Assembly (NCBI GenBank): GCA_001600455.1
Contig: BCKC01000002.1
Coordinates: 5,545,682 to 5,609,681, forward strand
DNA length: 64,000 nt
Origin: Endocalyx cinctus
Lineage: Eukaryota > Ascomycota > Sordariomycetes > Amphisphaeriales > Apiosporaceae
Reading direction: 5' to 3'
The notes under the pieces are model-generated. The model searched no databases. It had not been told where the DNA came from and was given only the letters and a program-made list of their open reading frames with translations. How positions within the stretch are numbered: the stretch's first letter is position 1; each line of letters opens with the position of its first letter. This document shows positions 29,827 through 55,136 of this stretch, piece after piece. The translations under genes were made by a program, and so were the position numbers.

Positions 29827-30984
29827 TCACATTTGTGACTTTGATAGAGATGTACCGTTAGAAAGAGGATTCTTAAGAATAGGACCCTTTCCCATGATGG
29901 GCTGATGATCTTTATTCCACTTATCCAAGGGCTCGTATTTTCTGCATTCTCTTTCTACGCGTGGATGTGGGTGGGCTCTCCCTGTCTCGAGGTTCATTTG
30001 AAACATGTGGACGCTGATGTCTCCATGGCACATGAGTATCTCTCGAAGGCTATCTAGGCAATGAACTAGTATGTGGTCATAATCCATATCAGTACGGGAA
30101 CTGTCATCGCGGTATCATAACGATGGTAGTACTGTATGCTGAGAACTTACCGGTATGCTCGGCTCGAAGAGCGGATTCTAGCTTATAGTAGTCGGAATAT
30201 GCACTTTGTCTTATATAATTCTGCATAAAAGTAAATATGGTTGTTAACCACTCCTGTAACAAAGACTTCAAAACATCTACAGGAGAAGATAGAAGTTCGA
30301 AGCACTTACCAGACAGTGTAGTTCATGAGTAAAGTCAAGGAAACTAAGATATCCGTCTTGGTTCAAAAGCTTTACGGACGTGCGATTGACCTTTTCGAGA
30401 TCGCCGGCTGTGACGGCGGCATTATGATCTGTTTTATATGTATATTTATCTGTTAGCTAACTGGCTAAAAGTCCTCAAGCTTATGAAAGTAAAACCGAAT
30501 TATACGCTCAGATGGATACTCACGATTCAAGATTTTTTGCCATGCTGCCTCAGCTTCCGGGCCAGGCCCCAGCTTGAACGGCGAGGGTTCTGAATTATCT
30601 TCAACTTGAATTTCGTACGCAACGGCCGACCGTGCAGGAGCTGTGGCAAGTTAGACATAGCATGAATTGAGACGTCCAAGAACGGGGTAGGTCAATAAAA
30701 CAAAAAGAAGCTCCGAAAAACTTTGGGGTAAACGGATATCGAATATACCACGCACAATATATAAGTCCTTGTTCTACTGGGCGATTCGAGTATCTAAGCG
30801 TAACCGCAGTAGCGAATATAGCGAGATATAAAACAAACAAGGAGATGTGAATCAGAATGAACCGTTTCTTTTTCTGCTTCGCTATATCGACATCTGAGCT
30901 CTGACTATGAATGTTGAGTTGAAGGTAGTTCAATCTGGGCATTGAGAAGAAAGTCATCCAGTCTGAATGATTCTTAGATGGCAT
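29827..30984 (-). CDS. UstYa/DUF3328 family oxidase, probably frameshifted
   Basis: Five exons on the minus strand: 30984-30756, 30640-30524, 30428-30310, 30220-30151 and about 30101-29827. UstYa proteins are membrane-anchored oxidases that make cyclic cross-links in fungal RiPPs. Seen here: a basic stop-transfer patch and TM (KQKKKRFILIHISLFVLYLA), the joint LIYSPARSAVAYE typical of the family, FKLGPGPEAEAAW, then the first catalytic motif HELHC followed by LNYIRQ, and after the last intron LVHCLDSLREILMCHGDISV. Exons 1-4 join in perfect phase. The last intron (GTAAGT to GACAG, 49 nt) joins exon 4 (phase 1) to an exon that needs phase 2, so the product is one base out of frame. The second motif reads HILVHC, with its His one place early. 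Either this gene is decaying, the sequence has an error, or a non-canonical splice site is used. Confidence 0.75.
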
Positions 30985-32014
30985 TTTGGGTAAGAAGGAG
31001 TGGCTACACGTATAGAAAGATCAGCGAATGGTCGATTCGTGCTGTTTTCCTGTTGACCGCACTTGAGCAAATGAAGGTGTTGGATGTGTATAGGAAGGCA
31101 ACAGCAAATAGGCACTGTCTATCACAAACAGGACGGTATTCTAAGCTACCGTATGAATTCACAAGTCACATTCTTGTGCAATCAAAACAAGACTATGTGG
31201 ACCCCCCAGTAACTGCTCACTGACACCGGTTTGGCTCCCATAACTACCTAATTCAACCAACACACCAACTCCTAGTTAGAACCATTCCTTCGAATAAGCA
31301 AATAGTTGCCGTCTGGAAGAATAGTTATTAAGGTAAGATATTATAATAGCTGGTATGATGTATTGAATGACTAAATGTCAATTAATTTAACTTTTTGATC
31401 CCATACTCGATTACTTGTATGTTCAACTATAAATAGATACACCAAAACAAAAGCGTATGAGGGACAAATCTTCTGCGATTGTGGCACAATACAGTATATT
31501 CTTAGGCTTCTTCTTCTTCTAGCTTAGATAACCGTGCATAGTCTCGCTGCAATGGTTTTATCGAGGCATGAGTAAAGTCGCGGAATTAACTATATCTACG
31601 TGTAAGTCAGATCTACACTATACTAGCCATATGGGACTAATCAAATCATTTAGAGGAAACTTATATGACTAGCTGTGCATTAGCATAAAGGGGTATATCT
31701 AGTAAAAAGCTAGTGTTTGTTTGGTAAGTATTTACTCAGCTCCAGATCTTTTATTGCCTCCAAACCTTTGGGATCGTGAATGAGTGATCGTCCTAGCGGA
31801 TAGCTCTCATCGTGGATCGATGACTTGAGGGTGATGGTAAAGCTGCGTTCATAGTCAACTTTTAAACCATGTGAACAAATGAGTAAGACACACAGTCACT
31901 CCCATCTCGGTGCCCCGAGTCATTATTTCTTAATAAGATATTATCAATAGAACGATGAACTATCATTATGCAGGTAATATGCAGACATTAAATGTATTGG
32001 CAGAATGAAAGACG
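30985..32014. other. Intergenic between UstYa-type genes
   Basis: About 1 kb of AT-rich DNA with no supported gene; it should hold the promoter of the minus-strand UstYa gene to its left. Confidence 0.45.
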
Positions 32015-54000: not shown

Positions 54001-55136
54001 CCTTTACGCTGCATCCCAGTCGGTAGTATACCTCGCCAGCGCTTTAGCCTTCTGGTACGGTGGAACATTACTCTTGAAGGGCGAATATTCCCTCTTTCAA
54101 ATCTATATTTGCTACAATGCTCTTATATCCGGCGCGCAAATTGCCGGTTCCATTTTCGCGTTTGCACCTGACGCGAGTAAGGCAATACATGCTAGTTGGG
54201 AGATTAACAAGGTTTTGGAAAGCAAAAAGGCTAGCAGTTCAAAAGAGAAAAGCTCTGATAACAGTAATGAAAAGGAAAAATACCCAAGGGAAGGCAATAT
54301 ACAGTTTCAAAACGTCAGTTTCGCGTATCCATCTCGGAAACAACATCTTGCCCTCGATAACTTTAGTCTGAAAGTCGGTGCTGGTCAATTTATCGCCCTG
54401 GTCGGTCCAAGTGGCTGAGGTAAAAGCACGATTTTATCACTAATTGAGCGTTTCTACACCCCTGCTACTGGAACTATCCTATTTGATACTCAGGATATCT
54501 CGACAATAGATGTAGAGAAGCATCGTCAGTCTATTTCACTTGTTAGTCAAGAGTCTGTATTGTTTTCCACCACAGTCAGAGAGAATATCGCAATGGGTCT
54601 TCCAGGGGCAGATGTATCGGACGAATCCATCATGGCAGCCTGCCGACAAGCTAATATAGAGACCTTCATCAACTCGCTCCAGTAAGTTACCTTGCACGTT
54701 ATGCTCATTACCTAAGCGGCTTGCCTTAGCAAACTCCGTTATTTGACATGAGTTATTTATATCACTTCTAATATTTCAATTAATTAGGGACGGCCTTTCT
54801 ACCTATGTTGGTCCCGGGGGCTGCATGTTAAGCGGTGGTCAAAAGCAGAGAATCGAGATAGCACGGGCGCTACTGCGAGATCCGGACATCTTGCTGCTGG
54901 ACGAGGCTACTTCAGCTCTGGACACTGAATCCGAAGCGCTTGTGCAAGAAGCGCTTGAGCTTGCGGCGAAACATAGGACTACTATTGCGGTGGCACACCG
55001 ACTGAGCACCATTCAAAAGGCAGACATGATATGCGTTCTCGACCATGGGAAGATAGTCGAATCGGGGACGCATGATGAGCTTGTGCAAAAGAAGGGCAAA
55101 TATTGGGAACTTTTAGAATTGCAAAACTTGCAATAA
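51048..55136 (+). CDS. ABC-B (MDR/P-glycoprotein type) full exporter with in-frame stop in NBD2
   Basis: Five exons: 51048-51221, 51281-52382, 52445-53294, 53359-54681 and 54788-55136, spanning 1265 sense codons plus the internal stop reading. Layout is TMD1-NBD1-TMD2-NBD2. Landmarks: NPLISVIYGQTVGIFG, FYYVGERTARALRNAYLKAI, RQNMAFFDTHEPGQVSTRI; NBD1 with Walker A GASGSGKSS (about 401-409), Q-loop GLVRQQPALFD, signature LSGGQKQRIAIARAL and Walker B VLLLDEATSALD; TMD2 QDVEFFDEKSHSTGSLLSIL; NBD2 with FQNVSFAYPSRK, VGPSG then TGA at 54416-54418 where a Walker A residue should be, GKSTILSLIERFY downstream, LSGGQKQRIEIARAL and ILLLDEATSALD. The frame is otherwise perfect on both sides, so the stop is recent or an error. 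As read, the product ends at 1061 aa without a working NBD2. Such pumps in RiPP clusters export the product. Confidence 0.9.

What the first reader, a model, noticed from the sequence alone, without database searches (positions are those of the whole stretch)
29827..55136. Probable new dikaritin-type RiPP biosynthetic cluster
Seen: a signal-peptide precursor with six Kex2-bounded identical Tyr-rich repeats, three UstYa/DUF3328 genes, a twin-HxxHC membrane protein, a UstQ-like tyrosinase, a methyltransferase, an SRPBCC protein and an ABC exporter within 25 kb. Known: ustiloxin, phomopsin and asperipin clusters combine a Kex2-processed repeat precursor with UstYa and often a tyrosinase. The core YYQKYI matches none of the dikaritin cores I know (YAIG, YVIPID, FYYTGY). 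No P450, FAD oxidase or pathway regulator is visible, so tailoring would differ from ustiloxin.
Basis: partly seen in the sequence, partly recalled or inferred. Interest (0 to 1): 0.93.

Follow-up and report, generated by a model that had tools for sequence, protein, structure and literature searches.

The report
Fungal repeat-peptide RiPP gene cluster
A fungal genome carries a set of genes that probably makes a small ring-shaped peptide from a repeated precursor protein, much as the known ustiloxin-type peptides are made, with an extra, unnamed family of possible copper enzyme beside it and at least two damaged genes.

Summary
The precursor (36396-36958, one intron, 167 aa) has a signal peptide and six identical AVKEPDTIYYQKYI units, five ending in KR, the last at the stop. 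Ten of 14 unit codons vary between copies, always silently. Around it lie two intact UstYa/DUF3328 genes, a UstQ-type tyrosinase, a twin-HxxHC membrane protein, a methyltransferase and an SRPBCC-like protein.

Corrections: the third UstYa gene is broken (in-frame stop, both HxxHC motifs lost); the ABC exporter has an in-frame stop in its second Walker A; a weak Zn2Cys6-like fragment exists.

Best reading: a dikaritin-type RiPP locus, perhaps decaying at its edges. The Tyr spacing (hydrophobic-YYxxY) equals asperipin-2a's FYYTGY.

The least expected part is the HxxHC protein, which has no Pfam family. In this genome its family lies within 15 kb of UstYa matches at 4 of 6 loci, one of them with another repeat precursor. 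Its two closest homologues and the tyrosinase's two closest come from the same two fungi, on contigs of identical length. It may be a second copper-enzyme family of fungal RiPP pathways, but its likeness to UstYa rests on the motif alone. No product, expression or activity was tested.

The parts
36396..36958 (+). Precursor gene (KEX2-processed repeat protein), exons 36396-36495 and 36555-36958, 167 aa, six identical AVKEPDTIYYQKYI units
   Evidence: Translation and splice sites; codon comparison of the six units; only copy in the genome; no homologue at E <= 1
29751..30984 (-). UstYa1 (DUF3328), 6 exons, 262 aa, HELHC and HTVHC intact
   Evidence: Gene model; PF11807 E 5.8e-41; one hydrophobic helix
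32015..32933 (-). UstYa2, broken: in-frame TAG at 32267-32269, motif positions read FRSLGC and QLNNC
   Evidence: Sequence, frames listed apart, PF11807 match with stops
33902..34894 (-). UstYa3 (DUF3328), single exon, 330 aa, HQVHC and HIDHC intact
   Evidence: PF11807 E 5.9e-44; one hydrophobic helix
38827..39600 (+). Twin-HxxHC membrane protein, 257 aa, HLHHC and HTAHC, no Pfam family
   Evidence: 24 homologues; seven family members at six loci of the genome
40953..42320 (+). UstQ-type tyrosinase, 4 exons, 389 aa, one N-terminal hydrophobic helix
   Evidence: PF00264 E 1.6e-41; homologues; tree; second CuB His is Pro here and in 38 of the first 40 aligned rows, query included
44059..44196 (-). 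Fragment with Zn2Cys6 spacing, 46 aa, probable regulator remnant (weak)
   Evidence: Zn_clus E 0.041, below cut-off
44614..46336 (-). Class I SAM methyltransferase, 9 exons, 367 aa
   Evidence: Gene model; Methyltransf_23 E 8.9e-24
47167..47774 (-). SRPBCC-like protein, 3 exons, 152 aa
   Evidence: Gene model; Polyketide_cyc2 24.7 bits, below the cut-off of 27.4
51048..55136 (+). Full-size ABC transporter gene, interrupted by an in-frame TGA at 54416-54418 in the second Walker A
   Evidence: Sequence; pieces on either side modelled apart; ABC_membrane and ABC_tran hits

Best explanation
A dikaritin-type (UstYa-dependent) RiPP locus. The precursor enters the secretory pathway by its signal peptide and is cut by Kex2 after KR into repeats that end in (I)YYQKYI. 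Membrane-anchored enzymes facing the lumen, UstYa1, UstYa3 and the UstQ-type tyrosinase, oxidise the peptide and close one or two Tyr ether rings, as described for ustiloxin and asperipin-2a. The HxxHC protein is inferred to be a further copper enzyme of the same step, and the methyltransferase may methylate the product. Shown here: gene content, identical repeats kept so under silent codon drift, intact motifs in UstYa1, UstYa3 and the HxxHC protein, one predicted membrane helix in each of the four oxidase candidates, and shared contigs of tyrosinase and HxxHC homologues in two other fungi. Inferred: Kex2 cutting, core border, ring chemistry, copper in the HxxHC protein, methylation, export, and that the locus is still active in spite of its damaged genes.
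For: Precursor anatomy and silent-only variation. Two intact UstYa genes within 7 kb. The tyrosinase lies 6.9 kb from a UstYa match, while the other 18 tyrosinase loci are at least 148 kb away or on contigs without one. Tyrosinase homologues named ustQ fall in its clade. Linkage with the HxxHC gene in Xylaria telfairii and Nemania sp. by equal contig length. A second repeat precursor with a UstYa and two HxxHC genes on C7. Literature passages: UstQ, UstYa and UstYb are needed for the first ustiloxin ring, and FYYTGY becomes bicyclic through AprY (PMC6514808); the HxxHC motifs of a DUF3328 enzyme bind two copper (PMC12435403).
Against: One UstYa gene and the exporter are broken and the regulator, if any, is a remnant. 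No peptidase or P450 was found in the window (P450 search incomplete). The precursor has no detected homologue, so the core's conservation between species is untested. All units are identical beyond the Tyr-rich part, so the core border is a guess. No expression or product data.
Confidence: 0.75

Rival explanations
1. The locus is a decaying or silent dikaritin cluster that makes no finished product in this strain.
For: In-frame stop and lost motifs in UstYa2, in-frame stop in the exporter, Zn2Cys6-like fragment with closed frame.
Against: The precursor repeats show only silent change; UstYa1, UstYa3, HxxHC, tyrosinase, methyltransferase and SRPBCC models are open with GT-AG introns. A sequencing error at the stops is not excluded.
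Confidence: 0.3
2. Only the precursor, the UstYa genes, the HxxHC gene and the tyrosinase form the pathway; the methyltransferase, SRPBCC and ABC genes are unrelated neighbours.
For: Linkage outside this genome was seen only for the HxxHC and tyrosinase homologues. The SRPBCC hit is below cut-off and the ABC gene is interrupted.
Against: A methyltransferase and a transporter belong to the five-gene dikaritin definition quoted in PMC12048977, and these genes lie within 15 kb of the precursor-tyrosinase block.
Confidence: 0.45
3. The precursor makes a linear secreted signal or pheromone-like peptide, and its UstYa neighbours are incidental.
For: Of 7878 repeat precursors surveyed in PMC7329392, 6120 have no UstYa gene nearby.
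Against: This one does have intact UstYa genes nearby; in that survey pheromone-type precursors, with three exceptions, do not. The unit has three Tyr and no WxW, the motif in the alpha-factor profile there.
Confidence: 0.1

Closest known systems
Asperipin-2a cluster (aprA, aprY, aprT, aprR; Aspergillus flavus)
   Same: Repeat precursor with a UstYa-type enzyme; same Tyr spacing in the core (FYYTGY against IYYQKYI; core from PMC6514808, passage).
   Different: Asperipin-2a has one UstYa-type enzyme, no tyrosinase, and a reductase (aprR); here two intact UstYa genes, a tyrosinase, an HxxHC protein and a methyltransferase.
Ustiloxin B cluster (ustA, ustQ, ustYa, ustYb, ustM; Aspergillus flavus)
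   Same: Repeat precursor, two UstYa-type genes, a UstQ-type tyrosinase and a methyltransferase (PMC6514808, passage; here).
   Different: Core YAIG against YYQKYI; no flavin monooxygenase or UstD counterpart noticed here (not searched for); HxxHC protein extra (my recall: none in the published cluster).
Phomopsin cluster (phomA, phomQ, phomM, five DUF3328 genes)
   Same: Repeat precursor, several DUF3328 genes, essential tyrosinase PhomQ, methyltransferase PhomM (PMC7329392 and PMC6514808, passages).
   Different: Core YVIP-type; five DUF3328 genes against two intact ones here.
Epichloecyclins (gigA; Epichloe)
   Same: Tyr- and Lys-containing products with a ring on Tyr and methylation on Lys reported (PMC6514808, passage); this core also has Tyr and Lys and a methyltransferase gene nearby.
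   Different: Different core; no test links this methyltransferase to Lys.
CctR and other UstYa/DUF3328 enzymes, as relatives of the HxxHC protein
   Same: One membrane helix, then two HxxHC motifs each on a predicted helix (PMC12435403).
   Different: No PF11807 match; an added Cys-rich block (CGxTxxEARxxGCxFD...C...CxD); profile similarity disappears when His/Cys columns are masked.

Membership tests
Dikaritins (five-gene definition of Ding et al. as quoted in PMC12048977) | Precursor with N-terminal leader and repeated cores | tested here: met
Dikaritins (five-gene definition of Ding et al. as quoted in PMC12048977) | Tyrosinase | tested here: met
Dikaritins (five-gene definition of Ding et al. 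as quoted in PMC12048977) | Methyltransferase | tested here: met
   its part in the pathway is untested
Dikaritins (five-gene definition of Ding et al. as quoted in PMC12048977) | Multiple DUF3328 proteins with two HxxHC motifs | tested here: met
   UstYa1 and UstYa3; UstYa2 fails
Dikaritins (five-gene definition of Ding et al. as quoted in PMC12048977) | Transporter or peptidase | tested here: inconclusive
   ABC gene present but interrupted; no S41 peptidase in the window
Dikaritins (five-gene definition of Ding et al. as quoted in PMC12048977) | Product with Tyr side-chain ether ring | not testable with these tools
   Needs LC-MS/MS
UstYa/DUF3328 (PF11807), for the HxxHC protein | Match to PF11807 over its cut-off | tested here: not met
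   No match for the window protein at E <= 1; of ten homologues scanned one has E 0.81
UstYa/DUF3328 (PF11807), for the HxxHC protein | Two HxxHC motifs after one membrane helix | tested here: met
   Strict twin motif in 23 of 25 aligned rows; model
UstYa/DUF3328 (PF11807), for the HxxHC protein | Sequence similarity beyond the motif | tested here: not met
   hhalign scores 40.2, 30.2 and 27.4 (three row sets) against shuffled maxima of 21.1, 22.5 and 19.8, but 10.9 and 14.7 with His/Cys columns masked
UstYa/DUF3328 (PF11807), for the HxxHC protein | Binuclear copper site | not testable with these tools
   Needs purified protein
UstQ-type tyrosinase | PF00264 domain and grouping with proteins named ustQ | tested here: met
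   a 25-member clade (support 0.996) holds two of the three ustQ names visible in the list, the third lies in the next larger clade
Canonical type-3 copper tyrosinase | Three CuA and three CuB histidines | tested here: not met
   Second CuB His is Pro, as in 61 of 121 aligned rows (57 His, 3 Ser); the other ligand columns hold His in this protein

The most novel reading that the evidence does not exclude
The Pfam-less twin-HxxHC proteins are a second family of lumen-facing binuclear-copper enzymes for fungal RiPP maturation, parallel to UstYa/DUF3328. They recur in KEX2-repeat precursor loci, work here beside a UstQ-type tyrosinase with an altered copper site on a hydrophobic-YYxxY core, and would be missed by genome mining that relies on PF11807.
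Probability: 0.4. Interest if true: 0.72.

Novelty: new variant of a known kind. Interest (0 to 1): 0.52.

Why it matters
Repeat precursors with UstYa genes are common (22% of 7878 in PMC7329392), but few repeat precursors have a tyrosinase within 15 genes (4.3%) and their cores differ widely. If the HxxHC family is a true partner, it is an unrecorded enzyme class in fungal RiPP loci and a natural test of what the HxxHC copper motif can do outside DUF3328. The shared loss of a copper ligand in UstQ-type tyrosinases bears on what the tyrosinase really does in ring closure.

Tried and rejected
Precursor homologue search: 704 candidates, none at E <= 1. The string YYQKYI (and two sub-strings) in held papers: five papers, the four listed all about monkeypox. 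PDB sequence search with UstYa3: one chain at E = 0.52, no relative. Fold search of the HxxHC model in the PDB: two matches, best E = 6.9. UstYa3 model from a single sequence: pLDDT 36, discarded. P450 and S41 searches: none in the window, the P450 search scoring 92 of 410 candidates. NCBIfam scan of seven proteins: two weak hits far below their cut-offs. Repeat and KR scans of the regions fetched around the C6, C8, C10:977 kb and C2:5.40 Mb HxxHC loci found no further precursor. Precursor scans covered 8 of 31 UstYa loci and found precursors at three: the window, C7 and C10:1.59 Mb.

Considered and rejected: alpha-pheromone precursor; HxxHC protein as a plain UstYa member; tyrosinase as a damaged gene (its altered CuB site is shared by its relatives). 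Limits: the linkage probability treats loci as independent and the 48 UstYa matches as the full set; leaving the window out, it is 3 of 5 loci within 15 kb (P = 1e-4) or 2 of 5 within 5 kb (P = 6e-4). In the profile comparisons the C10 family member was left out because it lacks the first motif, one member was cut at an inner Met, and the UstYa side had seven rows. The tyrosinase alignment used 120 listed of 139 homologues found.

For this version the counts were checked again and searches were added.
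Full report
What is there. Genes carry short GT-AG introns and the closest named relatives of two cluster proteins are from Xylaria and Nemania, so the organism is probably a fungus of the Xylariales (inference).

Precursor. Exons 36396-36495 and 36555-36958 with a 59-bp intron give 167 aa: a hydrophobic N-terminus, then six identical units AVKEPDTIYYQKYI, five followed by KR and the last by the stop. Spacers vary. Ten of 14 unit codons differ between copies; at least 13 substitutions are needed and none changes an amino acid, against a 19% silent share of random single changes. 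The unit as a whole is held fixed, including the stretch before the Tyr-rich part, so the N-terminal border of the core cannot be read from the repeats. It is the only such gene in the genome and has no homologue at E <= 1 in the protein collection, whose share of fungal proteins I do not know.

UstYa genes. UstYa1 (29751-30984) and UstYa3 (33902-34894) match PF11807 at 5.8e-41 and 5.9e-44 and keep both HxxHC motifs. The middle gene has an in-frame TAG, and FRSLGC and QLNNC where the motifs should be. In CctR, a DUF3328 enzyme, the motifs hold two copper per monomer and Ala mutants are inactive (PMC12435403, parts 1 and 2 of 3 read).

Tyrosinase. The gene at 40953-42320 matches PF00264 at 1.6e-41. 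The genome has 39 tyrosinase matches at 19 loci. This one is 6.9 kb from a UstYa match; of the other 18 loci 16 are at least 148 kb away and two are on contigs without one (that script was given 23 of the 39 matches, which fall in the same 19 loci). Its nearest relatives are from Nemania sp. FL0916 (66%) and Xylaria telfairii (63%). Of the 120 listed homologues three show the name ustQ; two of them share a 25-member clade with it (support 0.996) and the third, partial, is in the next larger clade. The second CuB histidine is Pro in 61 of 121 aligned rows, query included, and in 38 of the first 40; 57 rows have His and 3 Ser. So the UstQ-type subfamily, not just this gene, has an altered copper site.

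The HxxHC protein (38827-39600). No Pfam family and nothing near a cut-off in NCBIfam. Twenty-four homologues at E <= 0.01 were found; the 11 with an organism name are fungal. Of 25 aligned rows 23 have the strict twin motif, beside a Cys-rich conserved block. AlphaFold2 on that alignment (mean pLDDT 76, pTM 0.59) puts a membrane helix at 39-63 and the motifs on helices 188-207 and 222-234, the layout described for CctR. Profile comparison with seven UstYa rows beats 60 column-shuffled controls for each of three row sets, yet falls to control level when His and Cys columns are masked. Common descent is therefore not shown; the motif may be all that is shared.

Company of the HxxHC family. In this genome seven members lie at six loci. 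Four loci are within 15 kb of a UstYa match: the window (4.1 kb), C7 (1.5 and 3.3 kb), C6 (1.9 kb), C8 (12.2 kb). Two are not: C10 (112 kb) and C2 (171 kb). Within 15 kb 2.2% of the genome is covered, P = 3e-6, or 1e-4 without the window; within 5 kb it is 3 of 6, P = 9e-6, or 2 of 5, P = 6e-4. The C10 member has lost the first motif and reads YTKHC at the second. At C7 a second repeat precursor with four QYQLVV units lies between an HxxHC gene and a UstYa match, with another HxxHC gene beyond; whether that UstYa gene is intact was not examined. A third precursor, six NFPAPHNSY units, lies between UstYa matches on C10 with no family member near. No precursor was found by my scans at the C6 and C8 loci.

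Linkage elsewhere. The HxxHC homologues P0001 (Xylaria telfairii) and P0002 (Nemania sp. FL0916) and the tyrosinase homologues P0026 and P0025 of the same two fungi each stand for one contig, of 148,803 and 219,398 bases respectively. I read equal lengths as the same contig; adjacency was not seen, though the two Xylaria tags differ by seven.

Other genes. The methyltransferase (44614-46336) and the SRPBCC-like protein (47167-47774, below Pfam's cut-off) show no membrane helix. The ABC gene has an in-frame TGA in its second Walker A. A 46-residue fragment with Zn2Cys6 spacing lies at 44059-44196. Sequencing error cannot be excluded for the stops.

Mechanism. Each of the four oxidase candidates has one N-terminal hydrophobic helix, and the precursor a signal-type one, which fits processing in the Golgi lumen (inference; CctR is placed there, PMC12435403). 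In ustiloxin the first ring needs UstQ, UstYa and UstYb, and UstM methylates; in asperipin-2a AprY is needed for a bicyclic product from FYYTGY (PMC6514808, passages). The core here has the asperipin Tyr spacing and the ustiloxin enzyme set, so one or two Tyr ether rings are the most likely outcome.

What is known. PMC7329392 (part 1 of 8 and passages): 7878 repeat precursors in 1345 of 1461 strains, 22% with UstYa genes, 341 with a tyrosinase among the 15 closest genes. PMC12048977 (passages): five-gene dikaritin definition, and two HxxHC motifs as a mark of RiPP-related DUF3328 proteins. PMC8403587 (passages): ustiloxin-like clusters in several Hypoxylaceae. PMC12871659 (passages): two HxxHC motifs as a mark of the copper-dependent family. 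In the searches made (listings, and passages of the papers named) I saw no HxxHC family described apart from DUF3328 in fungal RiPP loci. Subscription papers are not held and supplementary tables could not be read, so this is not proof of absence.

Verdict. A new variant of a known kind: probably a working core with damage at the edges. The novel part is the HxxHC family and its repeated company with UstYa genes and repeat precursors.

Noticed in passing
40953-42320 and homologues P0025-P0144: UstQ-type tyrosinases share Pro in place of the second CuB histidine (61 of 121 aligned rows, 38 of the first 40).
   Followed up: partly
L027:875-1254 (G000:C7:2984874-2985253): Second repeat precursor with four QYQLVV units, between HxxHC genes and beside a UstYa match.
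   Followed up: partly
L044:6298-6813 (G000:C10:1591297-1591812): Third repeat precursor with six NFPAPHNSY units, between UstYa matches.
   Followed up: partly
L032:8858-10000 (-) and L033:428-1384 (+), G000:C8 about 2553857-2556383: Bacterial-type cell-wall genes in a fungal genome next to a UstYa gene: a frame with MurB_C (E 1e-13) and one with EPSP_synthase, the family of MurA (E 2.6e-32). Possible horizontal transfer; origin not tested.
   Followed up: partly
48560-49561 (-): Two adjoining frames without clear family, the larger with a weak AAA-ATPase trace (E 0.041, below cut-off); perhaps a gene remnant.
   Followed up: no
43557-44096 (-): Open frame of 179 aa without any Pfam or NCBIfam match, beside the Zn2Cys6-like fragment.
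   Followed up: no
G000:C10:1888658-1889392 and G000:C15:4060-4794: Tyrosinase matches with identical scores near the end of C10 and the start of C15: a duplicated chromosome end or an assembly overlap.
   Followed up: no
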